Assembly: GCA_000980375.1 (NCBI GenBank)
Contig: LARD01000015.1
Location: 1 to 39,299 of the forward strand
Source: Clostridium sp. K4410.MGS-306
GTDB taxonomy: Bacteria > Cyanobacteriota > Vampirovibrionia > Gastranaerophilales > Gastranaerophilaceae
DNA length: 39,299 nucleotides
Direction: 5' to 3'
Part shown: positions 5,821 to 31,466 of the stretch, in pieces
Numbering within the stretch: position 1 is the first letter of the stretch
How the letters are laid out: each line of letters starts with the position of its first letter
Notes under the pieces: generated by a model
What the model was told of the DNA's origin: nothing
Databases searched by the model: none
What the model saw: the letters and a program-made list of their open reading frames with translations, nothing else
Position numbers and translations under genes: made by a program

Positions 5821-6450
5821 TTAGTATTCTATGCCTGCATAACAGTCATATTTATTTCTGCCCGGTTTAAAACAGTCGCTTGACATGCCGTAGCCAGAAC
5901 TATTGACTTTGTGGGCATATTCGGATTCCAGATTGTTTTTAGGTATATTTTCTATTTCATCAAGTATAGTTCTGTACAAATCTGTTTTATACTCTTGCTC
6001 TGTTTGTGCCCACGGGTTATATAACTTACCAAATTTTCTTGGCATAGTCATACACTCTGACATCCCATCTACGTTGTTTTTCAAATCATTTATTGTTTCA
6101 GCACTCAGTCTGGACATTTTTACTCTGTCAGAAAGTATCTCGTATTTTAACCTTTTGGGGTCAATTATGCTTATGTCAAATTTCAGGCCTGACTTGGCAG
6201 GTGAAAATAAATTTGTCAAAGAAAACGGTTTACCTGCTCCTGTTATCAAGATTTTTAGGTTGCTGCTCAGCTGATTGAGTTTTGGCAATAGATAACTCAA
6301 TGTATTATTCATAACAGGCGTAAATTCAATACTTTTTTCGGATATGACATCTATCATCTGTCTGTCAACCCTTACCATTGCTTTAAAAGCAGGAGTATTT
6401 GTTTTTTTATTCTGGTTAAAATTATTTGTTGTTATTGCGTTTATTTTCAT
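5821..6450 (-). CDS. Unknown protein with FKA-type N-terminal tag
   Basis: 209 residues from the ATG at 6450. A longer frame opens with TTG at 6468, but that would overlap the upstream gene, and the ATG start gives the N-terminus MKINAITTNNF...PAFKAMV seen in several other proteins of the window. No signal peptide or membrane helix. The body is mixed helical, with LITGAGKPFSLTNLF near residues 85-100. The gene follows 6453-7055 with two bases between stop and start, so they form a two-gene operon transcribed toward nuoN. I do not recognise a family. Confidence 0.6.
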   Translation of the reverse strand: MKINAITTNNFNQNKKTNTPAFKAMVRVDRQMIDVISEKSIEFTPVMNNTLSYLLPKLNQLSSNLKILITGAGKPFSLTNLFSPAKSGLKFDISIIDPKRLKYEILSDRVKMSRLSAETINDLKNNVDGMSECMTMPRKFGKLYNPWAQTEQEYKTDLYRTILDEIENIPKNNLESEYAHKVNSSGYGMSSDCFKPGRNKYDCYAGIEY

Positions 6451-6452
6451 GT

Positions 6453-7055
6453 TTACCACCCCGGACAAGACCAGTAATATTCAGGAATTTTTTCTCCCGG
6501 AACGCCATCTGGCGGATTTATCTTGTATAACTTTTTGATAAGAGTATTGTTAGATTCTCTGTTTGCAAAATCTAAAATAGTATCTCTTGTTTTTTGAAAA
6601 CCAAGTTTTTCATAAGAAGCAGTCAGCGGGAAGAAATACTCGTATTCCAACCATTTTGTGTCCTGACCATTGTTTAAATTTTTTATGACTTCTTTAGGAA
6701 AATGAAAAGTTGAGTCATTAAATTTTGTTATGTGTTTTATTAATTCTTCCTGCTTGTTAAAAGAACTATGAAGGTTGACCCTTATTGTCCTTGCTAAATC
6801 AACATGAAAATCCATACTTACATCAAAGAATTTTTCAAAATTCTTTTTGATTATAGGCCAGGTTTCCTCAGCTATTTGGAAAAGTTTTGGCCCGTCAACC
6901 CAGATGTTTTTTATTGAGTTTATGTTTCCTGGCATTTTGTAAATTTCGTATCCAAAAGAAGGTTGTTTTGGATTTTGTACAGCGATAGTGCTACCCTGGG
7001 CAGATTTTTTTGAGACTGCAGGGTATTGCGTCATAGATACAGCATTTACTCTCAT
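6453..7055 (-). CDS. Unknown protein with SFG-type N-terminal tag
   Basis: 200 residues. The N-terminus MRVNAVSMTQY, a low-complexity Ser/Gln/Lys stretch, then QPSFGYEIYK at about residue 34 has the same plan as the tagged proteins at 5821, 18901 and 25327. The rest is charged, with no signal peptide or membrane segment. AAAGGAAACG precedes the ATG. First gene of a two-gene operon with the protein downstream, whose N-terminus is similar (MKINAI versus MRVNAV), although the bodies are not clearly alike. Function not recognised. Confidence 0.6.
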   Translation of the reverse strand: MRVNAVSMTQYPAVSKKSAQGSTIAVQNPKQPSFGYEIYKMPGNINSIKNIWVDGPKLFQIAEETWPIIKKNFEKFFDVSMDFHVDLARTIRVNLHSSFNKQEELIKHITKFNDSTFHFPKEVIKNLNNGQDTKWLEYEYFFPLTASYEKLGFQKTRDTILDFANRESNNTLIKKLYKINPPDGVPGEKIPEYYWSCPGW

Positions 7056-7119
7056 TTCGTTTCCTTTGTTTTTAAAAATAATTTACCACTTTTGTAGTAT
7101 AAATGATATAATTTGATAT

Positions 7120-7135
7120 AATAATTTAAATTATT
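7120..7135. repeat. 16-bp perfect AT palindrome
   Basis: AATAATTTAAATTATT between the divergent genes at 7055 and 7176. A perfect palindrome in a divergent promoter region could be an operator, but AT-rich palindromes also arise by chance in this base composition. Confidence 0.3.
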
Positions 7136-7163
7136 GTTACAATCATAGTGTAAAATTTTAGAG

Positions 7164-7169
7164 TATAAT
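7164..7169 (+). promoter_or_regulatory. -10 box of radA, probably leaderless
   Basis: TATAAT with only six bases to the radA ATG and no ribosome-binding site between. The expected transcription start falls on or next to the A of the ATG, implying a leaderless message. No convincing -35 box. Confidence 0.45.
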
Positions 7170-7175
7170 TTTTTA

Positions 7176-8567
7176 ATGGCTAAGCTGAAAACAAAATGGA
7201 TATGTCAAAACTGCGGTTACGAAACGGCAAAATACCTGGGTAAATGTCCTGACTGCGGACAATGGAATACTCTTGTGGAGGAAGTTTTTGAATCAATATC
7301 TCCATCTCAGGCTGCAAAAACTGTTCTAAATGACACAATACCTTGCCTGATAAACGATATTGAAATCGACCGTTCTATCCGTTTTACAACAGGAATAGAA
7401 GAATTTGACAGAGTGCTTGGCGGCGGTCTTGTCCAAGGTTCTATTGTTTTGCTGGCCGGCGACCCGGGGATAGGTAAATCTACAATACTTTTGCAAACAG
7501 GTAAAGCTATTTGTAAAGACGGAAGAACAGCTCTTTATGTATCTGCGGAAGAATCGGCTTCACAGGTTAAATTGAGAGCTCAAAGGCTCGGTGTGCAATC
7601 CAATTCTTTGTATATATATTCCCAAACTAATTTTGAAGCTATAAAAAGACAGATTGATGAAATAAAGCCGCAAATCCTTATTATAGACAGTATTCAAGCT
7701 GTTTATACAGACAGCGTCACAAGCTCCCCGGGGAGCGTTTCTCAGATAAGAGAATGTACAAACATTCTTATGGATATAGCAAAAAATAAAAATATTACTG
7801 TTGTTGTAATCGGCCATGTTACAAAAGAAGGTAATATAGCAGGACCTAAAGTGCTTGAACATATGGTTGATACGGTAATTTATTTTGAGGGGGACAGGTA
7901 TAAATCATACAGACTTTTAAGATGTATGAAAAACCGTTTTGGAACAACCAATGAAGTCGGGGTGTTTAATATGTGTGATGATGGATTGCACGAAATATCA
8001 AACCCCAGCGAGTTGTTTTTGAACGAACGCACACAAAACAATACCCCGGGGAGTGTTATAATCGCTACAAACGAAGGCTCTCGCCCTTTGCTCATAGAAA
8101 TACAGGCACTTGTCGGTACAACTTCATACCCTTCGCCAAGGCGTGTATCTAACGGTATTGATTACAATCGTCTTTTGCAAATTCTTGCAGTGCTTGAAAA
8201 ACGTATAGGTCTTAATTTAAGTAAGCAGGATGTGTATGTAAACGTTATCGGCGGGTTAGAGATTGATGAACCTGCCGCGGATTTAGGTGTTGCGCTTGCT
8301 GTTGCAACGTGCGCCAGAGACGTCTGTGTCAGCCCTGATACGGTGATAGTCGGTGAAATTGGCCTTTCCGGAGAAATAAGAGCAATTAACAATCTTGATA
8401 AACGCATAAAAGAATCCGAAAAACTCGGTTTCAAAAAAATCATTGTTCCTCATACAAATACGCTTAAAAAAGAAGAGTTTAAAAACATTAATATTGTACA
8501 GGTAAAACGTCTCATGGATGCGATAACAGCGTGTGTTTCAAAATCAGATAAAACAACTGTTTCATAA
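7176..8567 (+). CDS. radA: DNA repair protein RadA (Sms)
   Basis: 463 residues, full length. Domain order is classical: an N-terminal zinc finger (Cys10, Cys13, Cys24, Cys27), a RecA-like ATPase with Walker A GDPGIGKST at 95-103 and a Walker B ILIIDS, the RadA-specific KNRFG motif near residue 252, and a C-terminal Lon-protease-like domain (LAVLEKRIGLNLSKQDVYVN onward). RadA is a DnaB-type helicase that drives branch migration during recombination repair. The gene stands alone between a divergent unknown gene and the sigma-factor gene. Its ATG has no Shine-Dalgarno site, and a TATAAT sits six bases upstream. Confidence 0.96.
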   Translation: MAKLKTKWICQNCGYETAKYLGKCPDCGQWNTLVEEVFESISPSQAAKTVLNDTIPCLINDIEIDRSIRFTTGIEEFDRVLGGGLVQGSIVLLAGDPGIGKSTILLQTGKAICKDGRTALYVSAEESASQVKLRAQRLGVQSNSLYIYSQTNFEAIKRQIDEIKPQILIIDSIQAVYTDSVTSSPGSVSQIRECTNILMDIAKNKNITVVVIGHVTKEGNIAGPKVLEHMVDTVIYFEGDRYKSYRLLRCMKNRFGTTNEVGVFNMCDDGLHEISNPSELFLNERTQNNTPGSVIIATNEGSRPLLIEIQALVGTTSYPSPRRVSNGIDYNRLLQILAVLEKRIGLNLSKQDVYVNVIGGLEIDEPAADLGVALAVATCARDVCVSPDTVIVGEIGLSGEIRAINNLDKRIKESEKLGFKKIIVPHTNTLKKEEFKNINIVQVKRLMDAITACVSKSDKTTVS

Positions 8568-8632
8568 AAATTCCTCCAAATACATGATTCCTAATATCCC
8601 TTTATAAGTAGAATGTTAATATATACCGTCAC

Positions 8633-9508
8633 ATGCATGTATATGACGACTTATTAGGGGAAATCGTTGGATATCTGACAGAGATGAGCGAAGAATTAGA
8701 GTACAGTTCTTATAACAATATTAAAAGGCTTACGGATGAGGAGCTTGAGGCTTTGTGGCATGAATATCTTGCCGATAAGACACAGAAGGCTCTTAGAGAT
8801 AAGCTTATTGTTCAATATATTTATCTAACCAGATATGTTATCGGCCGTGTAAAAATGAATCTTCCGCAAACGTTTTCTATAGAAGACATCACGAGTTTTG
8901 GTGTGGAAGGACTTATAGATGCAATAGAAAAATATACCCCTGATAAAGGTGCAAGGTTTGAAACTTATGCCCTTATGCGTATTCGCGGTACAATTATTGA
9001 CAAAATTCGTTCACAGGACTGGGTTCCCCGCTCAACAAGAAAGAAAATTAAAGAAATAAAACTGGTTGCAGAACAGCTAAAACAATCACTCGGCAGAGCC
9101 GCAACAACAACAGAGCTTGCTGCTGCAATGAATATGGAAAAAGAAAAAATAGAGGCACTTCTTGCTGACGAAATGCAGGTTACTTCTATTTATGACAAAA
9201 AAGGTACTTCCGAAGAAAGCGTTGAAGTAATTGATACAATTCAGGATGAAAACTCCAAAAACCCTCTTGAGCAGCTTGTTGACAAAGATGTCAAACATGA
9301 ATTGCAAAATGCACTCAAACGTTTGCCCGAGAGAGAAAGAATGATAATGGTTCTTTACTATCACGAAAACATGACTTTAAAAGAAATCGGTGATACTATA
9401 AATGTTTCTGAATCCCGTGTGTGCCAGCTTCATGCACAGGCTATTATGAAGCTTAAAAACATTTTAACAACACATCGTTCCGACAGACTCAAACAAAGTA
9501 TCGTCTAA
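8633..9508 (+). CDS. RNA polymerase sigma factor, FliA/WhiG type
   Basis: 291 residues with sigma-70 regions 2, 3 and 4: LRDKLIVQYIYLTRYV and DITSFGVEGLIDAIEKY (region 2.1-2.2), GARFETYALMRIRGTIIDKIR with DWVPR (2.3-3.0), region 3 around 145-175, and NMTLKEIGDTINVSESRVCQLHAQAI (4.2). The RIRG-IDxIRxxDWVPR run is characteristic of the FliA/WhiG/SigD branch rather than the housekeeping factor. FliA drives flagellar and chemotaxis genes in motile bacteria; no such genes are in the window, so its regulon cannot be read here. TATATA lies seven bases before the ATG and no Shine-Dalgarno site is visible; Met18 at 8684 is an alternative start. It is followed by the hydrogenase operon with its own promoter. 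Confidence 0.88.
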   Translation: MHVYDDLLGEIVGYLTEMSEELEYSSYNNIKRLTDEELEALWHEYLADKTQKALRDKLIVQYIYLTRYVIGRVKMNLPQTFSIEDITSFGVEGLIDAIEKYTPDKGARFETYALMRIRGTIIDKIRSQDWVPRSTRKKIKEIKLVAEQLKQSLGRAATTTELAAAMNMEKEKIEALLADEMQVTSIYDKKGTSEESVEVIDTIQDENSKNPLEQLVDKDVKHELQNALKRLPERERMIMVLYYHENMTLKEIGDTINVSESRVCQLHAQAIMKLKNILTTHRSDRLKQSIV

Positions 9509-9556
9509 ATAAATGCTTGAATTATTAGTGATTTTTGAGTAAAATATTGTTTGTAA

Positions 9557-9586
9557 TTGTGATTTATGTCACGATATTGGTCTAAT
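9557..9586 (+). promoter_or_regulatory. Hydrogenase promoter overlapping a Rex- or CRP/FNR-like operator
   Basis: TTGTGA (9557-9562), 18 bases, TCTAAT (9581-9586) makes a reasonable sigma-70 promoter. The -35 box is itself the left arm of TTGTGA-TTTATG-TCACGA (GTGA-N6-TCAC at 9559-9572). This fits the Rex consensus TTGTGA-N6-TCACAA with one mismatch and also the CRP/FNR-type TGTGA-N6-TCACA. An operator covering the -35 box argues for repression. The same operator type recurs before hydG. Confidence 0.6.
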
Positions 9587-9612
9587 AATCTTGTGTAAAG
9601 GAGAAAACGTAA

Positions 9613-10113
9613 ATGAGCCCACAGACTCAAGCCGGTCTTGACTACTCAAAAGTCGATGAAATCCTGTCGTCTTATGAGTACAAAAAGTCAAATTTGATTG
9701 CTATTTTGCAAAAAGTACAGGAAGAGTTTAGATATCTTCCTACTGATGTAATGACATATATAGGAACAAAAATAGAAGGGTTGTCACCGGCTACGGTGTA
9801 TGGGGTTGCGACATTTTATGCACAATTCAGTCTGCAACCAAAAGGCAAATACGAAGTTAAGGTATGTGACGGTACTGCCTGCCACGTTAGAGGCTCAATG
9901 CCTGTTTTAAACGCTATTCATCAGTGCTTAAAACTCGTTGACGGTAAATTTACAACAGAAGACGGCCTGTTCTCTGTAGAAACAGTCAGCTGTCTGGGTG
10001 CGTGCGGTCTTGCTCCGGTTGTGGTTGTTAACGGTACTGTATACCCGCAAATGACTGCCGACGCAATAAAAACCGTAATTGAAACCATAATGGGCGAAGA
10101 AAGGGGCAACTAG
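9613..10113 (+). CDS. hydC: [FeFe]-hydrogenase NuoE-like [2Fe-2S] subunit
   Basis: 166 residues, NuoE/HndA family thioredoxin-fold ferredoxin. The four [2Fe-2S] ligands are Cys85 and Cys90 (CDGTAC) and Cys127 and Cys131 (CLGAC), with family motifs SPATVYGVATFYAQF and GLAPVVVVN. In trimeric NAD-linked hydrogenases this small subunit sits on the flavin subunit and is thought to take part in electron transfer or bifurcation between NADH and ferredoxin. AAAGGAG lies nine bases before the ATG. First gene of a three-gene operon; its stop is immediately followed by the ATG of the NuoF-like gene. The naming hydABC/hndABCD differs between species. Confidence 0.92.
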   Translation: MSPQTQAGLDYSKVDEILSSYEYKKSNLIAILQKVQEEFRYLPTDVMTYIGTKIEGLSPATVYGVATFYAQFSLQPKGKYEVKVCDGTACHVRGSMPVLNAIHQCLKLVDGKFTTEDGLFSVETVSCLGACGLAPVVVVNGTVYPQMTADAIKTVIETIMGEERGN

Positions 10114-11970
10114 ATGACTGCGACATTAATAAACATCAAAGGTGAACAGGAAAAAGTTAAAGAGCAGATTAAAGCACAGGGTTTAAGAGTGCTGGTTTGT
10201 GCCGGCACAGGCTGTGTTGCTAACGGCTCGCTAAAGGTTATAGAAAAATTTAAAGAACTCGGCGTTAATGTTCGTCCGATGACTCATCAGGATAAAGTAA
10301 CAATCGTACCAACCGGCTGCCACGGTTTTTGCGAACAGGGTGTGCTTGTTGTAATTCCGGATTTAGATGTGACTTATGTAAGAGTAAAACTTGAAGACGT
10401 TGAAGAAATCGTTGAAAGCCATATAAAAGAAGGCAAGCCGGTTGAAAGACTTCTTTATGTTGACCCTAAAACACAAGAACATGTATTCAAAAATGAAGAA
10501 ATCAATTTCTACGCAAAACAAACAAGAACAACTCTTGCAAACTGCGGTGAAATAAATGCCGAATCTCTTGATGAAGCACTTGCTGTTGGTGCTTATGAAG
10601 CATTGCACAAAGTCCTTGAAAAAGGTAATCCGGATTGGGTTATTGAAGAAATTACAAAATCAGGACTGCGCGGCAGAGGCGGCGGCGGTTTCCCTACAGG
10701 TATGAAGTGGAAATTCACTGCTGCAAACAAAGGCGGCAAAAGTTATGTTGTTTGTAACGGCGATGAAGGCGACCCGGGCGCGTTCATGGACAGAAGTGTT
10801 ATGGAAGGCGACCCGCACAAATTACTGGAAGGTATGGCAATTGCCGGCTATGCAATTGGTGCAGATGAGGCTTATATCTATGTAAGAGCAGAATACCCTC
10901 TTGCAATCCACCGTTTGAGAGTGGCAATTAAAGAAGCAGAAGAAAGAGGTTTCCTGGGCAAAAATATTATGGGTTCTGATTTCAATTTTGAAATCCATAT
11001 TAAAGAGGGTGCAGGCGCATTTGTTTGCGGTGAAGAAACAGCTCTTATCGCTTCTATTGAAGGCGAAAGAGGTATGCCAAGACCGAAACCGCCGTTTCCT
11101 GCAAACAAAGGTTTGTTCGGCCGTCCTACTTTGATTAACAACGTAGAAACCCTTGCAAACGTTGCTCCGATTATCCTGAAAGGTGCGGACTGGTTTAGCT
11201 CTATGGGTACTGAAAAATCAAAAGGCACAAAAACTTTTGCTTTGACAGGTGAGGTAAACAATACCGGCCTTATTGAAGTACCAATGGGTACAACTTTAAG
11301 AGAAATCGTATTTGACATAGGCGGCGGAATCCGCGGAGGTAAGAAATTCAAAGCCGTACAAATCGGTGGCCCGTCCGGCGGTTGTTTGACAGAAGAACAC
11401 CTTGACCTACCTATGGATTATGACAACCTTATTGCAGCAGGCGCAATGGTCGGCTCAGGCGGTCTTGTTGTAATGAACGAAGACACCTGTATTGTTGAAG
11501 TTGCAAGGTTCTTTATGAACTTTACACAAAACGAATCCTGCGGAAAGTGTGTTCCCTGCCGCGAAGGCACAAAAAACATGTTGAAAATCTTAGAAAGAAT
11601 TGTTAAAGGCAAAGGCGAGATGAAAGATATTGAAACTCTCGAAGAGCTTGCTGTTGCTGTTAAAGACGGTTCGCTTTGCGGGCTTGGAAAAACCGCTCCG
11701 AACCCTGTTCTTTCAACGTTGAAATATTTTAAAGATGAGTATATCGCTCACATCAAGGATAAGAAATGTCCTGCGGGCGTTTGCGAAGCTATGAAAATTA
11801 TTACAATTGATCCGGAGCTTTGCAAAGGTTGTACAAAATGTGCAAGAACCTGCCCTGTTGGCGCTATTGAAGGAACGGTAAAGAATCCGCACCACATTGA
11901 TCAGTCAAAATGTATAAAATGCGGCGCCTGCTTCAATTCTTGCCCGTTCAAAGCGATTAAACAAAACTAA
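10114..11970 (+). CDS. hydB: [FeFe]-hydrogenase NuoF-like flavin/NADH subunit
   Basis: 618 residues. Order of domains: an N-terminal thioredoxin-like [2Fe-2S] module (CAGTGC near residue 30 and CHGFC near 70), the NuoF FMN/NADH domain with RGRGGGGFPTGMKW, a flavin segment VVCNGDEGDPGAFMDR, an SLBB stretch, the NuoF [4Fe-4S] motif ESCGKCVPCREGT, and two C-terminal ferredoxin clusters (CKGCTKCARTCP, CIKCGACFNSCP). This is the HydB/HndC architecture of NAD-reducing or bifurcating hydrogenases: it oxidises or reduces NAD(H) at FMN and passes electrons to the NuoE-like and HydA subunits. Translation is coupled to hydC (zero-base gap). The gene is richer in G and C than the nuo genes, as expected for high expression. 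Confidence 0.95.
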   Translation: MTATLINIKGEQEKVKEQIKAQGLRVLVCAGTGCVANGSLKVIEKFKELGVNVRPMTHQDKVTIVPTGCHGFCEQGVLVVIPDLDVTYVRVKLEDVEEIVESHIKEGKPVERLLYVDPKTQEHVFKNEEINFYAKQTRTTLANCGEINAESLDEALAVGAYEALHKVLEKGNPDWVIEEITKSGLRGRGGGGFPTGMKWKFTAANKGGKSYVVCNGDEGDPGAFMDRSVMEGDPHKLLEGMAIAGYAIGADEAYIYVRAEYPLAIHRLRVAIKEAEERGFLGKNIMGSDFNFEIHIKEGAGAFVCGEETALIASIEGERGMPRPKPPFPANKGLFGRPTLINNVETLANVAPIILKGADWFSSMGTEKSKGTKTFALTGEVNNTGLIEVPMGTTLREIVFDIGGGIRGGKKFKAVQIGGPSGGCLTEEHLDLPMDYDNLIAAGAMVGSGGLVVMNEDTCIVEVARFFMNFTQNESCGKCVPCREGTKNMLKILERIVKGKGEMKDIETLEELAVAVKDGSLCGLGKTAPNPVLSTLKYFKDEYIAHIKDKKCPAGVCEAMKIITIDPELCKGCTKCARTCPVGAIEGTVKNPHHIDQSKCIKCGACFNSCPFKAIKQN

Positions 11971-11984
11971 AAGAGGAAAAAACA

Positions 11985-13769: not shown

Positions 13770-13787
13770 CAGTCAATTAAAAGTAAA

Positions 13788-13828
13788 AAATCCTTGTTTT
13801 TAGCATCAACAAAAACAAGGATTTTTTT
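13788..13828 (+). terminator. Rho-independent terminator of hydrogenase operon
   Basis: AATCCTTGTTTTT, nine-base loop, AAAAACAAGGATT, followed by a T-run at 13822-13828. It lies just after the hydA stop at 13769. Confidence 0.9.
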
Positions 13829-13840
13829 GTGCCGTAATGC

Positions 13841-13846
13841 TATAAT
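13841..13846 (+). promoter_or_regulatory. -10 box before the flavin reductase-rubredoxin gene
   Basis: TATAAT 29 bases before the ATG at 13876; the -35 region overlaps the terminator tail and is weak. Confidence 0.4.
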
Positions 13847-13875
13847 GTAGATGGCAGAAAATATATGAGGCGTTT

Positions 13876-14502: not shown

Positions 14503-14528
14503 ATATTTTTCGTGATAAAATATTACCT

Positions 14529-15608: not shown

Positions 15609-15636
15609 GCGTACAATTAAAATATATTTGTCAGAG

Positions 15637-16962: not shown

Positions 16963-17013
16963 ACCGGCAATATACAAAACACAAAACAATAAAACATTGT
17001 GCCAAAAGGTTAT

Positions 17014-17340: not shown

Positions 17341-17391
17341 TTTTCAGGTTCCATTTTGTTGAATCTAAAACGTGATATCAAAAAAACTGAT

Positions 17392-18900: not shown

Positions 18901-19797
18901 ATGATAGTAAACTTTAATTTTTCAAAACCTGTTAAAGGTGTAAAAATAGCCAACAGTATGCCAAAACCAATCAATTTTAAGGCCGGAGCTGATACTTTTG
19001 AAAAAAATACTAAAGAAAAAGATATAGAGCTTACTGTATACAATCCATACGTGAATACTGTTTTTCATATAAAAACACCTGTTGATTTGACAAAAAAGCA
19101 ACAAATAGTGATTACTTCAAAGTATTCTCGTTTTGCAGGGAAAAAACTTGTTGTTGATTATGACCCTCAAAGATATGACTACATCTTTGATAAAAAAAGC
19201 AATCGCCGTGAAAAAACAATGATTCTTGTCGGTCATGATGAAAGAAAACCCAATGAAATCTCTTATCATTTTATGTCACGAAGTTTAAGTAAAGAATACG
19301 GATATGTTCATCTGAGCCTTCACCGTGATCCCAGGGCGGATTTAAAAGAATCTTCTTTTTTGGATAGAGAGCTGTTGATAAATTATCCAAAGCACAAAAT
19401 TCAAGGGCCAAGAGTAATTGTTGAATATCTTCAAAACTGGGAAGATTCCAAAAAAGGAGGCATTGGCAGGCTTGCAGATAAACTTGCCGTAAAATATTGT
19501 ATTGAAAATAATATTAAACCTGTAATAATTTCAAATGCAGACAGAGGCTCACATGTTGCACATTATTTAAGAGGAAAACGTTTCCTCCCGCCAGAAAAAG
19601 ACACATCTTCTTATGACTATTTGGCAAAAAATTATGGCTGTACAAATTTAAATAAAATACTTGCAAAATTACTAAAAGATTCGGAAAAAAACGAAGAAAA
19701 AATAGACCTTGGAGATTTGGGGATGTTTCCTATGTATATGCCGGAAGAACTTGCACAAAAGTATGTAAAAGAGTTAGAATCTGAAAAGAAATTATAA
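18901..19797 (+). CDS. Unknown protein with FKA-type tag, possible GNAT fold
   Basis: 298 residues. N-terminus MIVNFNFSKPV...PINFKAGAD (Phe26-Lys-Ala) matches the tagged set. No signal peptide or membrane helix. Residues about 175-225 run PRVIVEYLQNW, then KKGGIGRLADKLAVKYC, then NADRGSHVAHYL, which resembles the beta4-helix3-beta5-helix4 core of GNAT acetyltransferases with a G-I-G acetyl-CoA loop, but this is a weak resemblance by eye. GAAGGT precedes the ATG. It is followed after 14 bases by the LUD-domain gene, so they are probably co-transcribed. Confidence 0.5.
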   Translation: MIVNFNFSKPVKGVKIANSMPKPINFKAGADTFEKNTKEKDIELTVYNPYVNTVFHIKTPVDLTKKQQIVITSKYSRFAGKKLVVDYDPQRYDYIFDKKSNRREKTMILVGHDERKPNEISYHFMSRSLSKEYGYVHLSLHRDPRADLKESSFLDRELLINYPKHKIQGPRVIVEYLQNWEDSKKGGIGRLADKLAVKYCIENNIKPVIISNADRGSHVAHYLRGKRFLPPEKDTSSYDYLAKNYGCTNLNKILAKLLKDSEKNEEKIDLGDLGMFPMYMPEELAQKYVKELESEKKL

Positions 19798-20471: not shown

Positions 20472-20505
20472 ATCTGCTATATTTTTATAAAAAATTTCGC
20501 GCCAG

Positions 20506-20534
20506 TTGCAATGTCATACTAAAAGATATATAAT
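20506..20534 (+). promoter_or_regulatory. Sigma-70-type promoter of the glycine-rich prepilin gene
   Basis: TTGCAA (20506-20511), 17 bases, TATAAT (20529-20534). Gives a leader of about 65 bases to the ATG at 20607, which has CAGGAG in front. Confidence 0.65.
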
Positions 20535-20606
20535 ATATACATAAGTACTGTATTTAATAAGCTATTATCTTATTAATGCTGATGAATATTTAATTCAGGA
20601 GTTTGT

Positions 20607-22166: not shown

Positions 22167-22171
22167 AGATT

Positions 22172-22205
22172 AAAGAGCTCTTATGAAAAACATAAGAGCT
22201 CTTTT
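22172..22205. terminator. Bidirectional terminator between prepilin gene and nrdG
   Basis: AAAGAGCTCTTATG, AAAAA loop, CATAAGAGCTCTTT, then T-run to 22207. The A-run on the left arm gives a T-run in the other direction too, and the two flanking genes converge here. Confidence 0.88.
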
Positions 22206-22691: not shown

Positions 22692-22692
22692 A

Positions 22693-24966: not shown

Positions 24967-24975
24967 TAAAAATCT

Positions 24976-24993
24976 CCTTTTTTTACAAAAAGG
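24976..24993 (-). promoter_or_regulatory. Hairpin masking the nrdD ribosome-binding site
   Basis: On the RNA: CCTTTTT, loop GTAA, AAAAAGG, with the AAGGAG ribosome site partly inside the right arm and the ATG eight bases beyond. Fits a translation on/off platform for the riboswitch-like leader upstream. Confidence 0.5.
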
Positions 24994-25035
24994 CAGAAAT
25001 CGGCCAGCAAAATTATTTAAACTGTTAATTTTTCT

Positions 25036-25132
25036 CCCAAATTCCTGTCTCGAGGTATGTGACAATTGAAGCATTCCGGCTATTACGGCTGCGGACCAGC
25101 GAGTGATTTTCGCACTTCTTTCCTTCAATTCC
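25036..25132 (-). ncRNA. Cobalamin-riboswitch-like leader of nrdDG
   Basis: Reading the minus strand, the leader contains GGAAAG, GTGCGAAAATCACTC, then GCTGGTCCGCAGCCGTAA (25083-25115). This follows the B12-riboswitch core 'GGGAA..GGUG.AAA.CC..C.G.CC.GC..C.GUAA' closely. It is followed by CGAGACAGGAAT (25041-25052), similar to the B12 box 'AGYCMGGA'. A perfect 8-bp helix, AATTGAAG (25123-25130) with CTTCAATT (25064-25071), encloses the core. Only about 30 bases separate the core from the B12 box, so the large peripheral helices of the classical form are missing; this looks like a compact variant. Identified by eye, without a covariance search. Confidence 0.6.
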
Positions 25133-25197
25133 TTTTTATTATTTTATCAAAAATAATAAGTATTTTCAAATGGTTTTAAAAATAAATTAATAAAAAA

Positions 25198-25284
25198 CGG
25201 AGAGGGTGGGATTCGAACCCACGGTACAATTGCTTGCACACAGACTTTCGAGATCCGCACCTTAAACCACTCGGACACCTCTCC
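25198..25284 (-). tRNA. tRNA-Ser(CGA)
   Basis: Cloverleaf with acceptor GGAGAGG/CCTCTCC, discriminator G, D-arm GTCCGAGTGGTTTAAGG, anticodon loop CTCGAAA (anticodon CGA, codon UCG), a long variable arm typical of serine tRNA, and T-arm GTGGGTTCGAATCCCAC. The 3' CCA is not encoded. It lies upstream of the nrdD leader on the same strand. Confidence 0.95.
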
Positions 25285-25326
25285 ATAGCTTTATTTTATT
25301 ATAAAATCATTTTTTTTAAAGCGAAA

Positions 25327-25695
25327 TTAAACTTCTTCTTTTTTTGTTTCAACACCGGGTGCATCTTTGATAATAAACGGTCTTACAAATGCGTAAGTGC
25401 CGTATAATGAAGCTGCAAGACCTGCAAAAGAAAGTGCTTTTGATGTTTTTGCCAGGGTTTTGCCAAGAAGGCTGCCCGCTGTTATTAATGTAGTGCCTGC
25501 CATTATACCAAGATAACCTTTAAATATTGTTCTTGGCACAACAATAGTATCTGTCATATCAGCACTGTTTTTTGTTTTTTCATGGAATTTTTCAAAAAGT
25601 CCTGTTTTTTTAACAGGCGCTTTTTCCGCTTGATCTTGTTTAAAATTTGTTTTGTAATTTGAATTGAATGAAGTATTAATAGAGTGCAGTTTCAT
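25327..25695 (-). CDS. Small tagged membrane protein
   Basis: 122 residues from the ATG at 25695, chosen because it gives the N-terminus MKLHSINTSF...YKTNFKQ, which fits the tag seen in other genes here; a frame from 25725 adds ten residues. Two hydrophobic segments lie at about residues 60-82 (YLGIMAGTTLITAGSLLG) and 88-108, with a short basic loop between, and a charged C-terminus. The tag precedes the membrane segments, so it would be exposed on one face. No known family. Minus strand, 47 bases downstream of the MCE gene. Confidence 0.55.
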   Translation of the reverse strand: MKLHSINTSFNSNYKTNFKQDQAEKAPVKKTGLFEKFHEKTKNSADMTDTIVVPRTIFKGYLGIMAGTTLITAGSLLGKTLAKTSKALSFAGLAASLYGTYAFVRPFIIKDAPGVETKKEEV

Positions 25696-25742
25696 GTTTC
25701 GGTTCCATTCCCTTTGTCTACACAATCATAATACTTCAAAAA

Positions 25743-26630
25743 TCAGCGCCTGCAAGGGTTACATTCACATTCCTTAACAGTTTTTCCAAATAAAATCCTC
25801 AAGCCGCCAAACCGTTTGGAAAGAGTTTGTCTTATGCCACAAGTTATTGCATTTGCGTTGCTGACAAGGCTTTGTGTTTCATAAAGCGTTGTATCTATTC
25901 TTGGCATAGCGGTATTGATGCTCTGCGTTGTACCGTTTAGGCTGCTTGTGAGAGTTTGTACGTTTTTAACGGATTCATCTATGCTGGTCATTGTGTTATC
26001 AAGCGATTTTTGTTTGATTGAACGGTCAAATTTTGATGTAATCTGGTTCAAATTTCCTGTTGTACCTGCAAGGTTTTTTGATAAGGATTTTATGCTTACC
26101 TGATTTTCTTTAATCACATCTTGAATAAGCACCAGAAGTTCTGTAAGCTGGCCTGTTGCATCGTCTAGGTTTTCGGATGCGCTTGCCAGATTTTCCTTAA
26201 TCTGCTGTAAGTCGTCAGGATCTTGATTTGCCATAAAAGAATCTACATCAACTGTTGCTTTTCCCTTCAATTCTGTACCGTCAGCTATCATTTTGTCGGA
26301 AGGCTCTTTGGGATAAATAAGCTCTAAAAAATCGTGCTCTTTTTCGTTATTTCTTTTTTCTTTTTTTAACAGAACCTTAGTGTTGTCTGGCAGCATGAGA
26401 TTTTTGGGATATAAGACGACATTTACGAGGGTATATTTGTAATCATCCGTATGGTTTCTGTCCAATGCTTTACCAACGACAATTCCTTTGTAATACACAG
26501 GAATACGATGATGAAATGGTCTCAGTTCGCTAAACTTGACTGTTATATAGGTATAGGTTGTGAGTTTATAAATGTAAAAGCCGAGCCCTAGCAAAATAGC
26601 TATAGAAGCTAAATAAAAGTATTTTTTCAT
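25743..26630 (-). CDS. MCE/MlaD-domain protein
   Basis: 295 residues. One N-terminal membrane helix (about 5-23) is followed by an MCE domain (about 28-125): YTYITVKFSELRPFHHRIPVYYKGIVVGKA, with the 'G..VG.V' turn of the family. Then a long Ser/Thr/Asn-rich helical region (about 140-275) forms a coiled-coil tail. MCE proteins make hexameric rings or tubes that carry lipids between the two membranes, usually with an MlaE permease and MlaF ATPase. Neither is next to this gene. The C-terminus ends in CECNPCRR, with three cysteines. A diderm envelope is implied. Confidence 0.85.
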   Translation of the reverse strand: MKKYFYLASIAILLGLGFYIYKLTTYTYITVKFSELRPFHHRIPVYYKGIVVGKALDRNHTDDYKYTLVNVVLYPKNLMLPDNTKVLLKKEKRNNEKEHDFLELIYPKEPSDKMIADGTELKGKATVDVDSFMANQDPDDLQQIKENLASASENLDDATGQLTELLVLIQDVIKENQVSIKSLSKNLAGTTGNLNQITSKFDRSIKQKSLDNTMTSIDESVKNVQTLTSSLNGTTQSINTAMPRIDTTLYETQSLVSNANAITCGIRQTLSKRFGGLRILFGKTVKECECNPCRR

Positions 26631-26700
26631 AGTTCAAATAATATATCTGATTTTAATATGAATAAACACCCGATACGGCTAATTAATTGTTTTAATATTA

Positions 26701-28809
26701 TTAAAAGCTCAGGTTTATCTGGAATTTTTTCAAATACATCTCCATGTCTTCTTTATCAAAGCGCAGTACGGTATTAGGAGTACCGTTGAAGTATCTTATT
26801 CCGTCTTCTTTCATTCCAAGGGATTTGTACAGTGCAATATTGCGCGGATTATCTGTTGCAAATTTTAGTGTGTCGTTGCCTGTTTCCAGACAAAAACTCA
26901 CCATTCTGGCAATTACAGCTTTTGCACTGTTTTTCATAATTCTTTCCTTGCCCTGATTCCAGGGTGCTGTATTAAGGCTTCTTCCCCATATACAGCCGTC
27001 ATTTTGAATTTCTACATTAGCTATTGCTTGAATTTTTCCTTCAGCTCTTAACACAAAATATTGCGCGTCTGGGTATAATTTTCCTGACTTGTAGGGTGGT
27101 AAAATCTCTGCTTGTGGATATTTTTCCTGTTTCCATTGCTTTTTAATTTCTGCTGCCAGATCAGTATATGTTTTTTCGCTGCTAAAAGGCATAATATCAT
27201 TTATTTCGCCGAAAACAGAGCGGCCTTCTTTTATATTTTGAAGATATACGCTCTGACCATCTTTTAGTATATTCCAAGGTAGTTTAACATCTTCTTTTGG
27301 CACAAGTGACAGGTATTTGGAGTCTTTGTTTTGTATTCTTTTTAAAAGCAGCTCTCTTTTTTGAGGTAAAAGTTTCATATATGCTTCAAAGTCTCTGTCT
27401 TCTTTCGGTTTTATAGAGTAAGAGCCGTCTGCCATTGCGGCAATTTCTTTTTGCAATTCTTCGCTCAGGTCGTGTTTTGAAACATCAAATCTGATTCCTG
27501 ATTTTTCAATTCTGTCAAATGCTTCGTTTATTTGTTTTTCATTTGCAGACATTACTATCCTGACATACCCGTCACCGTTTGGGCCAAAAACATCACCGGG
27601 CGTGAATGCAATTTGTGATTTGTGTAAAACATATTTAAAAAATTCATCAGAGTTAAAATCAGGTGGAATTTTGGCCCATAGATAGTAAGTTCCGTCTGTG
27701 GGTTTTGCATCACTGCCAAGTTTGTGCAGTCTGTTTATAGCTGTATTTTTACGGTTCCTGTATATCTTGTTTACTTTTGAAATGTATCCTTCTTCGTCTT
27801 TTAAGGCCTCAATTGCAGCTGCCTGTACGGGAATATAAACGCTTCCGCCAGAAAGATATTTAGCTTTTAAAAGGTTGTCGATATTTTCTTTTGCGCTTAC
27901 GGCAAAGGCAACGCGAAGACCCGGCATACTCTGTGCTTTAGAAAAAGTGTGTATTTCAAAAGCAACATCTTTGGCTCCTCTAGCCTGCATAATCCCGGCA
28001 GGCTTTTTACCGGAATGAGTAATTTCGCTGTTATCCATATCGTGGATGATTAGGATTCCGTTTTCTTTTGCAAATTTTACTGCCTGTTCATAGATACTTT
28101 TTGGAGCAAAAGAACCCGTAGGATTGTGCGGGTAATTTAGAATCATTATTTTTGCATCTTTTGGCATTTTTGAAAAATCCGGCAGATATCCGTTTTGCGG
28201 ATACAGTTTGTATGCTTCTTTTTTCAGGTCATGACGTGTTATAAGGTCATCGTACAAGGAATATCCCGGGTCTGGAACAAGCACTTTATCGCCGTAATTT
28301 GCATAAGCTGTAAATATATGGTCAATAGCATCCGAGGAGCCGGATGTGGCCATTACTTCTTTTTTAGGGTCAATATCCACACCGAATCTTTTTTTCATCC
28401 AGCTGCTTACTGTATAAAAAAATGCGCCATCTCCTTTGGGACTGTTATATCTGTGTGACCAAAGGTCGTTAACTTTATCTTTTAGTGCCTGTTTTGCTTT
28501 TTCCGGCGGGGTTAAATCAGGATTGCCCATTGACATATCAACAACTGCTCTGTCTCCGTGCAGGTATCTTGCTTTGCTTATTTCTGCAATGTAATTTGAA
28601 ATTTTGTAATCTGAATTTTCAAGTCTTGAAGACGGCTTTATTTTTTTGTCTCCATAAAAACTTATCAAAGCAAGTTTTGCGCTGACAATGGGAAAATCCG
28701 GTTTTTCTTCTTGAATTTTTTTCTGATAGTTGTTGTCTGTCTTAATATTTACGACATTAAGACTGTTTTTTATAAATTTATTGTGAAAAGTTACGGGATA
28801 TATTTTCAT
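26701..28809 (-). CDS. Class I/II aminotransferase fused to a GNAT-like domain
   Basis: 702 residues. Residues 1-12 (MKIYPVTFHNKF) look like the N-terminal tag of this window. Residues about 70-450 are a PLP-dependent aminotransferase: GNPDLTPP, SGSSDAIDH, YPHNPTG (Asn229), HDMDNSEI and the PLP lysine Lys291 in HTFSKAQSMPGLR, close to the LL-diaminopimelate/aspartate aminotransferase type. Residues about 540-690 resemble a GNAT acyltransferase (YFVLRAEGKIQAIANVEI, then NPRNIALYKSLGMKEDG). The two parts could act in succession on an amino product, but the substrate is unknown. Its ATG overlaps the stop of the SDR gene by 4 bp, so they are co-translated. Confidence 0.82.
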   Translation of the reverse strand: MKIYPVTFHNKFIKNSLNVVNIKTDNNYQKKIQEEKPDFPIVSAKLALISFYGDKKIKPSSRLENSDYKISNYIAEISKARYLHGDRAVVDMSMGNPDLTPPEKAKQALKDKVNDLWSHRYNSPKGDGAFFYTVSSWMKKRFGVDIDPKKEVMATSGSSDAIDHIFTAYANYGDKVLVPDPGYSLYDDLITRHDLKKEAYKLYPQNGYLPDFSKMPKDAKIMILNYPHNPTGSFAPKSIYEQAVKFAKENGILIIHDMDNSEITHSGKKPAGIMQARGAKDVAFEIHTFSKAQSMPGLRVAFAVSAKENIDNLLKAKYLSGGSVYIPVQAAAIEALKDEEGYISKVNKIYRNRKNTAINRLHKLGSDAKPTDGTYYLWAKIPPDFNSDEFFKYVLHKSQIAFTPGDVFGPNGDGYVRIVMSANEKQINEAFDRIEKSGIRFDVSKHDLSEELQKEIAAMADGSYSIKPKEDRDFEAYMKLLPQKRELLLKRIQNKDSKYLSLVPKEDVKLPWNILKDGQSVYLQNIKEGRSVFGEINDIMPFSSEKTYTDLAAEIKKQWKQEKYPQAEILPPYKSGKLYPDAQYFVLRAEGKIQAIANVEIQNDGCIWGRSLNTAPWNQGKERIMKNSAKAVIARMVSFCLETGNDTLKFATDNPRNIALYKSLGMKEDGIRYFNGTPNTVLRFDKEDMEMYLKKFQINLSF

Positions 28810-29648
28810 AAAGTCTTTCTAAAATTAAATAGTTTTGTGACACCTGTGTTAAAATCTGTAAACTCAAAATCCGGCAGCTCTTTTAAAAGCAGTGAGTTAT
28901 CGCCTGTGTATTCAAAATTAAGACCTTGTTCTTTGAATCTTATATCTGATTCAAATCCGCTTATTTGGTTGACTGTTTGTGCTATCTGCAGCAGTGAAAT
29001 ACTCTTTGTTGGTGTGACATTTATTACTCTGCTTTTGGGAAAGCTTGTTATAAATTTTTCCACAATTCTGCATAAATCATCGATATAAAGATAATCGAAC
29101 ACAACATTCTTGTTAATTATCACAGGCTCTTTTTTTAGGTTTTGAATAATCGCATACGATGGGAATCTACTTTCTTTTTCATATTTTCCGTAGCATGCAA
29201 ATATATTGAGGCACAACATATCTCTTCTTGATAAAGCCAGCTTACATAGCTCCATTTTTGATTTACCGTACTGATCTTCCGGTACAACCTCGCCTATTTG
29301 AGTTTCTTTTACTTTTTTTAAATCTCTTGCTTTTGAATATGCTGCTCCCGAGCCGAAAATTATGACTTTTGTTGTTTCAGGCTTTGCAAACAGAATATTG
29401 TTTACCATTTTTATATTATCCTGTTCACAGTTTTCAGGGTCGGCACAGCCTCTGACACCGCCTGTAGAGGCACAATGTATAACAAAATCAATACTGTTGT
29501 TTGAAAAAAAATTTTTTACACTTTCACAATCTGTCAAATCCAGTTCAAAACTTCTTGGACATAAAAGATTGTACTTAGAATTAAAATATTCTTTTAAATT
29601 TTTTCCGACAAAGCCCCCAGAGCCCGTTATTAAAATATTTTTAATCAT
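28806..29648 (-). CDS. NAD-dependent epimerase/dehydratase (extended SDR)
   Basis: 280 residues. N-terminal Rossmann motif ILITGSGGFVGKNL; VIHCAS; FGSGAAY; and the catalytic YGKSK (YxxxK). The set resembles nucleotide-sugar epimerases and dehydratases such as GDP-fucose synthase or rhamnose reductases. It is 20-40 residues shorter than most. It is the first gene of an operon with the aminotransferase-GNAT fusion. Aminotransferase plus SDR plus acyltransferase is a common set in amino-sugar synthesis, but the aminotransferase here is not of the sugar class, so this link is only a suggestion. Confidence 0.82.
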   Translation of the reverse strand: MIKNILITGSGGFVGKNLKEYFNSKYNLLCPRSFELDLTDCESVKNFFSNNSIDFVIHCASTGGVRGCADPENCEQDNIKMVNNILFAKPETTKVIIFGSGAAYSKARDLKKVKETQIGEVVPEDQYGKSKMELCKLALSRRDMLCLNIFACYGKYEKESRFPSYAIIQNLKKEPVIINKNVVFDYLYIDDLCRIVEKFITSFPKSRVINVTPTKSISLLQIAQTVNQISGFESDIRFKEQGLNFEYTGDNSLLLKELPDFEFTDFNTGVTKLFNFRKTL

Positions 29649-29705
29649 AGGACAATGATATCATATAAAAGGCAAAAAAATTTTTTTACGTGTTTTCTAA
29701 CTTGT

Positions 29706-31466
29706 ATGAATCAGATTTTTTTTAACTCTTTAAATTCCTTTAAATATCCTTTTCATAAAAATAAAGAACATTTGCCCCGTCAAAATGTAAGTTTTGCTCA
29801 ACGACGCACAAGTGCTGATATTTATGAAAAAACGTACACAATTATCCCTTACGATATAAGAGAAGATTTGCATTCTCTTGAATATTCTTTTAAACAAATA
29901 AAAGAAATTCTTGATAAAAAAACTGGAGAGGGTGTAAAATCTTTAATTAATGCATCCGGTAAATTTAATACAGTTGATGGTATTACTTTTAAAAATGTTG
30001 GAGACGCGTGTGATAATGTTTCTTTTGACTCGGGAAGTTTCAAAAATCTATCAGGCACAATAAGAATTACGCAAAGATCTTCTGCCGGCGAAATTAAACA
30101 GGGGTGGCTGATTCATAACGACAGAGTTGTTAAAAATTACAATCCGTCAAATCCAAATTCTCTGCCGAATAATATTGAATATTATTCACTTGAAGAGCTT
30201 CAACAATCCGGCATAAATGACAAACTAAGAAATGTGCTGGCAAACCTTGACCCTGTGATGCTTAAGGTTAGGCAGCTGGCTGTTGCTCAAAAAGATACGC
30301 ATTTAAAAACCCCGGCTGCTACCATTTCTGAGGATGCTCTTCATTCTCTGGATAAAATTCAGGATTTGACTGATAAAGTCATAAAAACAGCTGATGAGAT
30401 ACCTCATTCCACTTTGTATAAGCTTAATGTGAAGTTTCCTGATTATAAACAAATCTCCGGACAGAGTTCTTATACTTTTCAAAATTTAGGCGATGATAAA
30501 ATTCAAATAAATTATTCTACAATAGATAGCAAGAAACTCGGGTATCTGCAAAGATTAATGGTTTATGATAAAGAAGGGCAGATTAGAACAGGATATTTGA
30601 TCAGTGACAACAAAATAGTTGCCAACTTTAATCCTAAAATCCCTGCGATGATGCCTGAAAAATTTTATTATGTTGATGAAAATAAAATTCAAAATGCTCA
30701 TTATTCTCAAGCTTTTGAAGATTATCTAAACCTTTATTCCGATGCAATTAATGCTTATTTAAAGCATATTACGCCTGATAATAACCCTGCATCATTGCCA
30801 CAGGAATATGCTCCTGTAATGGAATCTGTGCGCAATTGCTTTGAATCTATAGAAGATAAATTTGCAAAGATAAATAAAGTAAAAGTTTCCAAGCTAAAGA
30901 CTTCTTATCCTGATTTTCTTAATATGGCCGGAAAACGCGGCTATACCTTTAAAAATGCAGGCCCTAATAACGAGACTATCAATATTATGCGCTGCAAAAC
31001 AAAGCAGTGTAATGATATCCTAAAAATAACAGTTTTTGATGATAAAGGTGATATAAAAGATTATCTGCTTGTACAGGATAATTTTGTAATAAGCAATTAT
31101 AATCCAAAGTATCCGATGGATATACCTTCTGCGCCTAAGTTTTATAACAGCCGTGATATCTACAAATTATCAGCCTTTGATTACCTGGAGTCGCTTAATG
31201 CAAAGATTGCTGATTTTGAAAAATTTGTTGATGAAAAAATTACAAAAAAACAACAATCTAAAGAAGAAAAATGTTTACAACCGGAGAAGGTTGTTGAGCC
31301 TAAACCGATTTCTAAAAAGTTAGGATACAAAGAAATTGTTGCACAATGCAAGCGTGATTTTAAAGAAGCTGTTGCCAAACTACAACAGGGCAAAGAAGCA
31401 AAAGAAGACTTTTTTAAAGCACTTGATGACATTCGTGCAAAAGTAGAGGATTATTTTGGTGAATAA
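29706..31466 (+). CDS. Unknown protein with three internal repeats and SFA tag
   Basis: 586 residues from the ATG at 29706. An ATG at 29655 would sit only six bases from the divergent SDR start. From 29706 the N-terminus is MNQIFFNSLNSF...NVSFAQRR, in line with the tag. Three copies of a domain of about 160 residues follow. Each ends in a matching strand-turn: RVVKNYNPSNPNSLP (30120), KIVANFNPKIPAMMP (30613), FVISNYNPKYPMDIP (31084). Each copy also has an ITFKNVGD / YTFQNLGD / YTFKNAGP element. The C-terminus is a charged coiled coil. No family recognised. It directly precedes hydG, and its stop lies inside a hydG operator. Confidence 0.65.
   Translation: MNQIFFNSLNSFKYPFHKNKEHLPRQNVSFAQRRTSADIYEKTYTIIPYDIREDLHSLEYSFKQIKEILDKKTGEGVKSLINASGKFNTVDGITFKNVGDACDNVSFDSGSFKNLSGTIRITQRSSAGEIKQGWLIHNDRVVKNYNPSNPNSLPNNIEYYSLEELQQSGINDKLRNVLANLDPVMLKVRQLAVAQKDTHLKTPAATISEDALHSLDKIQDLTDKVIKTADEIPHSTLYKLNVKFPDYKQISGQSSYTFQNLGDDKIQINYSTIDSKKLGYLQRLMVYDKEGQIRTGYLISDNKIVANFNPKIPAMMPEKFYYVDENKIQNAHYSQAFEDYLNLYSDAINAYLKHITPDNNPASLPQEYAPVMESVRNCFESIEDKFAKINKVKVSKLKTSYPDFLNMAGKRGYTFKNAGPNNETINIMRCKTKQCNDILKITVFDDKGDIKDYLLVQDNFVISNYNPKYPMDIPSAPKFYNSRDIYKLSAFDYLESLNAKIADFEKFVDEKITKKQQSKEEKCLQPEKVVEPKPISKKLGYKEIVAQCKRDFKEAVAKLQQGKEAKEDFFKALDDIRAKVEDYFGE

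What the first reader, a model, noticed from the sequence alone, without database searches (positions are those of the whole stretch)
5821..29804. A shared N-terminal tag on unrelated proteins
Five or six proteins start with a short beta-like stretch, M-[K/R/I]-[I/V/L]-[N/H/Y]-x-[I/V/N], then a polar low-complexity stretch, then a [N/A/S]-F-[K/G/A] motif around residues 18-36. They are at 6450 (MKINAI...AFKAM), 7055 (MRVNAV...SFGYE), 18901 (MIVNFN...NFKAG), 25695 (MKLHSI...NFKQD), 28809 (MKIYPV, an aminotransferase-GNAT fusion) and 29706 (MNQIFF...SFAQR). The bodies are unrelated and no signal peptide is present. This looks like a targeting, docking or export signal not among the known classes.
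Basis: partly seen in the sequence, partly recalled or inferred. Interest (0 to 1): 0.82.

Follow-up and report, generated by a model that had tools for sequence, protein, structure and literature searches.

The report
Shared N-terminal address tag, gut Gastranaerophilales
Unrelated proteins in a little-known group of gut bacteria begin with the same short, floppy sequence tag, which looks like an address label read by some unidentified partner in the cell and matches no sorting signal we could test.

Summary
The tag is real. Better defined, it is M-[K/R/N]-[I/V]-x-x-[I/V], a polar linker of variable length, then [P/V/I/L]-[S/N/A]-F-x-[G/A]. Five of six window proteins beat their own shuffles, one of them (25695) through a wrongly placed core; the sixth (29706) does not, but its homologues keep the Phe. 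In the best-sampled relative, 34 of 720 ORFs score as tagged (two judged false); other stretches are poorer, one not enriched. In 20 aminotransferase homologues the only columns of residues 1-53 at 85% or more are M1, K2, I3, I6 and F51; in 59 aligned 5'-nucleotidase-like proteins the Phe is invariant. AlphaFold2 leaves both tags below pLDDT 50: conserved but unfolded, hence probably read in trans. Codons vary synonymously; tagged proteins lack Sec-like N-termini. Outside the order I found no convincing set, but sampling was thin. Microcompartment and encapsulin shells gave no match in 97 genomes of the order. All 97 match the FlhA/SctV family while 63 give no flagellin match, so an export signal for a non-flagellar type III-like gate is my leading, unproven reading (0.35); docking inside the cell is equally likely, given tagged AAA+, radical-SAM-like and aminotransferase enzymes.

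The parts
6379..6450 (-). Tag on the 209-aa orphan: MKINAI ... T-P-A-F-K-A (residues 1-24)
   Evidence: score 17.7, shuffle p=0.0002
5821..6450 (-). Tagged orphan protein, 209 aa
   Evidence: no Pfam match above cut-off
6948..7055 (-). Tag on the 200-aa orphan: MRVNAV ... Q-P-S-F-G-Y (residues 1-36); neighbour of the previous tagged gene
   Evidence: score 14.1, p=0.0038
6453..7055 (-). Tagged orphan protein, 200 aa
   Evidence: no Pfam match above cut-off
18901..18984 (+). Tag on the 298-aa orphan: MIVNFN ... P-I-N-F-K-A (residues 1-28)
   Evidence: score 14.0, p=0.0012
18901..19797 (+). Tagged protein, 298 aa, no Pfam; homologues in 2 of 6 related genomes (four copies, two of them with S-F-K-A or S-F-G-S near the N-terminus, two without)
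25636..25695 (-). Tag on the 122-aa small protein: MKLHSI, then two candidate cores, Phe at residue 10 (as in the homologues) or 18 (residues 1-20)
   Evidence: 21 of 22 distinct homologous N-termini keep a Phe at residues 8-19
25327..25695 (-). Tagged small protein, 122 aa, no Pfam; family in 60 of 97 order genomes
28651..28809 (-). Tag on the aminotransferase-GNAT fusion: MKIYPV, linker, L-I-S-F-Y-G (residues 1-53)
   Evidence: M1, K2, I3, I6, F51 are the only columns >=85% in residues 1-53 of 20 sequences; pLDDT <50 over residues 1-55; p=0.0002
26701..28809 (-). Class I/II aminotransferase (PF00155, residues 89-434) with a GNAT-like C-terminal region (PF00583, 15.1 bits, below its cut-off 20.7)
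29706..29801 (+). Weak tag: MNQIFF ... N-V-S-F-A-Q (residues 1-32)
   Evidence: p=0.105 alone; three homologues keep V-[NS]-F
29706..31466 (+). Tagged protein, 586 aa; 8 proteins found at E<=0.001; no Pfam match above cut-off

Best explanation
The shared N-terminus is a two-point linear address peptide: a small hydrophobic anchor at residues 3 and 6 (M-K-I-x-x-I), a disordered polar spacer whose length hardly matters, and a Phe anchor ([PVIL]-[SN]-F-[K]-[G/A]) before the folded body. SHOWN: it is protein-level and N-terminal, it is conserved within three families while the spacer drifts, it is shared by bodies with unrelated domains, it is not part of the predicted fold in the two families modelled, and it is not Sec-like. 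INFERRED: it is bound in trans by one common reader, which sends or tethers many proteins per genome to one place. COMMITTED BUT UNPROVEN STEP: the single likeliest reader is the export gate (or the soluble FlhA-C-like paralogue) of the non-flagellar type III-like apparatus that nearly all sampled genomes of the order keep, so tagged proteins would be its substrates (about 0.35); docking to an unknown intracellular or membrane scaffold is as likely (about 0.35). The confidence given is for the trans-read address tag, not for the destination.
For: Within-family conservation: aminotransferase: only M1, K2, I3, I6, F51 at >=85% in residues 1-53 of 20 sequences; phosphoesterase: only F12 in residues 1-14 of 59; F12 invariant in 59; F51 invariant in 20; 21 of 22. 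Disorder: mean pLDDT 92.4, residues 7-12 <50; residues 1-55 <50; mean 74.5. Enrichment: G002 strict core in residues 4-20 at 10.4 per 10,000 against 1.1-1.7 beyond residue 60; 24 proteins against 8.6 +/- 3.1 shuffled; F-to-Y, F-to-L and order-changed controls show no comparable N-terminal rise in G002; loci without training proteins: 41 of 429 at score >=11 against 2.0; by my count 16 of the 41 lie outside the two bait families. Protein-level: (synonymous codons vary, ordinary upstream). No Sec-like segment: (0 of 34 tagged against 164 of 686 untagged). Clustering: (7 adjacent tagged pairs, 1.55 expected, p=0.0006). Type III-like gate: 97 of 97; FliP 96 of 97; flagellin 34 of 97.
Against: No partner, location or secretion shown. 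Enrichment in stretches not chosen for it is uneven: G001 1 of 201 at >=11 against 0.7 shuffled; G013 5 of 185 against 0.4, of which I judge two or three genuine; G007 8 against 4.4 +/- 2.0. Of the 34 G002 hits 23 were training examples. Of the 16 non-bait hits several are homologous pairs and I judge three false. Not every relative keeps the tag: two of four copies of the 18901 family lack it, and some G002 paralogues of tagged proteins do (C3:119016, C3:21334, C2:110204). Against export in particular: tagged AAA+ ATPases, radical-SAM-like proteins with CxxxCxxC, PLP aminotransferase, CheR- and HD-type enzymes look cytoplasmic; 6 of 34 have a hydrophobic segment further on; ORFs that look like flagellar-type structural parts by eye start without the tag; G163, with a gate of the same score class, shows 0 of 84. 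Low acidity of the linker is not special: polar-rich untagged N-termini are as low (7.1% against 7.0%).
Confidence: 0.72

Rival explanations
1. Intracellular docking: the tag tethers cytoplasmic and membrane proteins to an unknown scaffold, ring or membrane site of the bacterium itself; nothing is exported.
For: Tagged bodies include AAA+ ATPases, CheR-like, HD-type, radical-SAM-like and PLP enzymes; some carry later hydrophobic segments (6 of 34), and one (L104:13472-14941) repeats the S-F-K-G core internally (sequence).
Against: The two shell systems sought gave no match (BMC 0 of 97; encapsulin 0 of 97); no other scaffold was tested. Strict N-terminal placement is more typical of sorting signals than of tethers (my judgement).
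Confidence: 0.35
2. Type III export signal: the tag is the common N-terminal secretion signal of an order-wide, non-flagellar type III-like apparatus. (This is the committed sub-step of the best explanation, listed apart so that it can be judged apart; its odds are part of the 0.72.)
For: FHIPEP match in 97 of 97 and FliP in 96 of 97 genomes, flagellin in 34 of 97; the G002 gate protein scores 434.9 bits with a FlhA and 404.6 with a 'Low calcium response protein' chain, a type III gate by my recollection; tag is N-terminal, disordered, polar, without Sec-like segment; a tagged orphan lies about 3-4 kb from the ATPase and gate genes in L105; the tagged phosphoesterase has 5'-nucleotidase fold matches, many of them exported proteins to my knowledge, although the second best, YunD, is cytoplasmic by recollection.
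Confidence: 0.35
3. Cis-acting element: the N-terminus helps folding, stability or translation of its own protein and is shared by convergence.
For: In the phosphoesterase family the core abuts the first strand directly.
Against: Same two-point pattern on unrelated folds; Phe at residues 7-71; pLDDT <50 at the invariant Phe; synonymous codons vary.
Confidence: 0.12
4. Chance: low-complexity Asn/Lys/Ser-rich N-termini of an AT-rich genome give MKI starts and an S-F-K-G now and then.
For: Some random stretches are not enriched (G001).
Against: Shuffle and letter-swap controls, and invariance of the Phe within families.
Confidence: 0.05

Closest known systems
Two-part export signal of early flagellar (rod/hook) subunits: N-terminal hydrophobic signal plus gate recognition motif (Bryant et al. 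2022, PMC8983047; abstract, outline and passages seen)
   Same: Hydrophobic residues at the extreme N-terminus, a spacer, and a second short docking element.
   Different: There at least 26 residues should separate the two elements (passage); here the Phe sits at residue 20 in the median and at residue 12 or before in about a quarter of 77. Bodies here are enzymes and orphans, not rod/hook subunits.
N-terminal type III secretion signals of effectors as a class (recalled)
   Same: Disordered, polar N-terminus on unrelated bodies.
   Different: I recall no shared sequence motif of this strength for that class; secretion is not shown here.
Encapsulation peptides (bacterial microcompartments) and encapsulin cargo peptides (recalled)
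   Same: Short linear tag on unrelated enzymes, read in trans.
   Different: Neither shell family gave a match in 97 genomes of the order.
Sec/Tat signal peptides
   Same: N-terminal, Lys at residue 2 common.
   Different: 0 of 34 tagged G002 ORFs have a hydrophobic stretch in the first 45 residues.

Membership tests
Sec/Tat signal peptide | Hydrophobic core in the first ~45 residues | tested here: not met
   0 of 34 tagged G002 ORFs against 164 of 686 untagged, by a Kyte-Doolittle window of 19
Bacterial microcompartment encapsulation peptide | A BMC shell protein in the genome | tested here: not met
   PF00936 in 0 of 97 sampled genomes of the order; controls ring in 2 of 14; the window's own genome is not held
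Encapsulin cargo-loading peptide | An encapsulin shell in the genome | tested here: not met
   PF04454 in 0 of 97; controls ring in 3 of 14
Early flagellar subunit two-part export signal | Small hydrophobic residues at the extreme N-terminus | tested here: met
   among tags with the Phe beyond residue 11 (a subset of 77 score-selected sequences), residue 3 is hydrophobic in 70% and residue 6 in 57%
[quoted passage not shown]
   Phe position median residue 20, quartiles 12 and 40, n=77; requirement from a passage of PMC8983047
Type III secretion substrate | A type III export gate in the genome | tested here: met
   in relatives only: FHIPEP 97 of 97 (in G051 only a partial match), FliP 96 of 97; the window's genome is not held
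Type III secretion substrate | Disordered N-terminus | tested here: met
   pLDDT <50 at residues 7-12 and 1-55, two families modelled
Type III secretion substrate | Secretion that depends on the gate | not testable with these tools
   needs an experiment
Type III secretion substrate | Tag present only where the gate is present | tested here: inconclusive

The most novel reading that the evidence does not exclude
Gut Gastranaerophilales keep, mostly without flagella, an unrecognised order-wide type III-like secretion apparatus, and this two-point Phe tag is the shared address of its many substrates per genome, some of them lineage-specific copies of housekeeping enzymes sent to the cell surface, neighbours or host. 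The soluble FlhA-C-like protein found alongside would be the tag's receptor.
Probability: 0.25. Interest if true: 0.92.

Novelty: new variant of a known kind. Interest (0 to 1): 0.7.

Tried and rejected
Unbiased motif discovery on N-termini found only hydrophobic, signal-peptide-like segments, which drown the tag. DNA patterns for the tag were too insensitive in early form; a better one (9 hits in 1.58 Mb of the order against 0-3 for its four controls) could not be run over genomes. Acid depletion of the N-terminus looked like a signal-peptide trait, but polar-rich untagged N-termini are as acid-poor as the linkers, so I do not use it. A DNA-level or translational element was rejected on codon variety. 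Shell-based compartments were rejected. The consensus of the 40-protein alignment (MxIxxxxPxxxxxSFKG) is not independent evidence, since the proteins were picked for the motif; a second set of 27 gave only MxIxxI. Tag hits in outgroup genomes G111 and G102 are mostly weak or doubtful gene calls; two in G111 (20476, 58016) could be genuine. A search for phylum relatives of the tagged 5'-nucleotidase L004:1378-2817, to see whether they have Sec signals, did not complete.

My ORF caller is crude (longest non-overlapping ORFs; start by codon and Shine-Dalgarno score) and the score is trained on 33 hand-picked examples; sensitivity is limited (tagged-looking paralogues such as C4:69765 and C3:54126 were missed). 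The G002 hits C3:3809 and C4:80971 I judge false. One search stopped with an error after printing the conservation figures; its second part was rerun. Family and domain names not tied to a call (FliE, FliF, FlgC, dGTPase of the window and the like) are by eye or from memory.
Full report
WHAT WAS CLAIMED AND WHAT IS THERE. The window belongs to a Gastranaerophilales bacterium or close kin: its aminotransferase-GNAT fusion has 21 relatives in genome contigs at 64-81% identity; 14 of the 21 record titles name Gastranaerophilales, Melainabacteria or Scatousia, the other 7 say only 'bacterium'. The whole genome of the window is not held, so relatives were used. In them many unrelated ORFs start M-[K/N/R/Q]-[I/V]-x-x-[I/V], go on with an Asn/Lys/Gln/Ser-rich stretch and reach [P/V/I/L]-[S/N/A]-F-[K/x]-[G/A]. 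Of 77 score-selected sequences the position before the Phe is Ser in 41 and Asn in 15, the one two after it Gly in 45 and Ala in 20, and the one two before it Pro, Val, Ile or Leu in 61 (the selection makes these a description, not a proof).

CHANCE. In G002 (five contigs, one of them 3 kb short, plus 20 kb; 735 ORFs) the strict core [PVIL][SN]F.[GA] occurs at 10.4 per 10,000 positions in residues 4-20, 2.0 in 21-40, 6.1 in 41-60 and 1.1-1.7 beyond; 24 proteins have it in residues 4-60 against 8.6 +/- 3.1 in 300 shuffles (maximum 21). Versions with Tyr or Leu for Phe or with the order changed show no such rise there. In G007 (397 ORFs) the count is 8 against 4.4 +/- 2.0, with 7.4 per 10,000 in residues 4-20 and 1.0 beyond 200. 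With a trained score, loci that hold no training protein give 41 of 429 ORFs at 11 or more against 2.0 in shuffles; by my count 25 of the 41 belong to the two families that brought the loci in, leaving 16, several of them homologous pairs and three judged false. Unselected 200-kb stretches are poorer: G013 5 of 185 against 0.4 (two or three judged genuine) and G001 1 of 201 against 0.7. So density varies, from 34 of 720 ORFs by score in G002 (two judged false; 23 were training examples) down to no measurable excess.

WITHIN FAMILIES. This is the strongest evidence. Among 20 aminotransferase sequences the only positions of residues 1-53 conserved at 85% or more are M1, K2, I3, I6 and F51, with a mean of 39% for the region; the spacer differs in length and letters. 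A 5'-nucleotidase-like phosphoesterase first met as a tagged ORF in G007 has 468 relatives, the best 120 listed. Of 99 distinct N-termini among these 120, by my reading 97 have the Phe just before the first strand and two are fragments that lack the N-terminus (P0049, P0111). In the 59 that I aligned, F12 is invariant and is the only position of residues 1-14 above 85%. Of the small protein at 25695, 21 of 22 distinct N-termini keep a Phe at residues 8-19. Two pairs of G002 paralogues only 26-35% identical both look tagged, among them the two radical-SAM-like proteins; other paralogues of tagged proteins (C3:119016, C3:21334, C2:110204) do not, and neither do two of four copies of the 18901 family.

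NOT PART OF THE FOLD. The phosphoesterase model has mean pLDDT 92.4, yet residues 7-12, with the invariant Phe, are below 50. In the aminotransferase model residues 1-55 are below 50 (a poorer model, mean 74.5, with other low stretches). Conserved but unfolded is the mark of a linear motif that binds something else. The motif is selected at protein level: Ser, Gly and Phe codons at the core vary and the upstream DNA looks ordinary.

WHAT CARRIES IT. Of 30 tagged or tag-like proteins scanned one by one, 20 match no Pfam family at the thresholds used. Matches seen in all scans: aminotransferase, AAA+ ATPases, metallophosphoesterases (one with a 5'-nucleotidase C-domain), an HD protein, a CheR-like methyltransferase, a DUF2963 protein, an HNH match, helix-turn-helix families, and weak radical-SAM and isochorismatase matches. 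Tagged genes sit next to each other more often than expected (7 pairs, 1.55 expected, p=0.0006). None of 34 has a hydrophobic stretch in its first 45 residues, against 164 of 686 untagged.

DISTRIBUTION. Outside the order I saw no convincing set: 14 genomes of the phylum without PF00771 1 of 276 ORFs at 11 or more (0.6 expected), G163 0 of 84, G100 0 of 72, G128 0 of 31, G102 2 of 183 (0.6 expected), G111 4 of 283 (0.4 expected; strict core 5 against 3.05). The groups of these genomes are not told.

WHO READS IT. Microcompartment shells and encapsulins gave no match (0 of 97 each). What each of the 97 sampled genomes has is a FHIPEP-family (FlhA/SctV) match (in G051 only a partial one), with FliP in 96, although flagellin is matched in only 34. 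Two full-length classes are visible, 858-891 bits in 31 genomes and 668-736 bits in most. In G002 a protein of the second class scores 434.9 bits with a FlhA and 404.6 with a 'Low calcium response protein' and lies beside an ATPase with the T3SS ATPase C-terminal domain. Passages of PMC5877343 speak of partial flagellar gene sets in the order; passages of PMC4451040 on Vampirovibrio speak of a type IV system. Each genome of the order sample has at least two FHIPEP matches; where listed, the second is often a protein of about 490-510 aa that holds only the C-terminal domain (one checked). An export signal for this apparatus is therefore my leading reading, with docking inside the cell as likely, because cofactor enzymes are among the tagged proteins. 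In the early flagellar two-part signal (PMC8983047, abstract and passages) at least 26 residues should separate the parts; here more than half of the tags are shorter, so membership of that class is not met although the layout is similar.

LITERATURE. Searches for the lineage names with N-terminal, motif, type III secretion, secretion system and flagella listed no paper that, by title and start of abstract, describes this tag or a type III-like apparatus in the group; one search showed 15 of its 20 papers, and only the held open-access library was searched.

VERDICT. A real, protein-level, probably trans-read N-terminal address tag of Gastranaerophilales (confidence 0.72), destination unproven.

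Noticed in passing
G007:C11:295080-301066 (L060-L061) and L105:13139-19815: Type III-like gene clusters (gate protein and T3SS-type ATPase by Pfam in L105; FliE/FliF/FliG/FliH-like neighbours by eye). G007 has no flagellin match; in the order sample FHIPEP is matched in 97 of 97, FliP in 96, flagellin in 34.
   Followed up: partly
L155:10082-11542: A 486-aa protein whose residues 124-476 match only the C-terminal part (301-654) of FHIPEP; similar second matches are listed for many genomes of the order. Function unknown.
   Followed up: partly
window 26701-28809: Aminotransferase-GNAT fusion, listed near full length for only 8 of 156 genomes of the phylum sample.
   Followed up: partly
L104:13472-14941: A tagged protein with hydrophobic segments that repeats the S-F-K-G core inside (sequence) and shares domains with its tagged neighbours at L101:5895-7639 (31-38% identity).
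   Followed up: no
window 37342-37989: YopX-domain protein (PF09643, E 8e-13), a family I recall from phages, near a tRNA-Ser.
   Followed up: no
L079:393-8659 (G002:C3:60393-68659) and L062:16071 to L063:7838 (G007:C11:336071-347838): Islands of several near or adjacent tagged genes with different bodies.
   Followed up: partly
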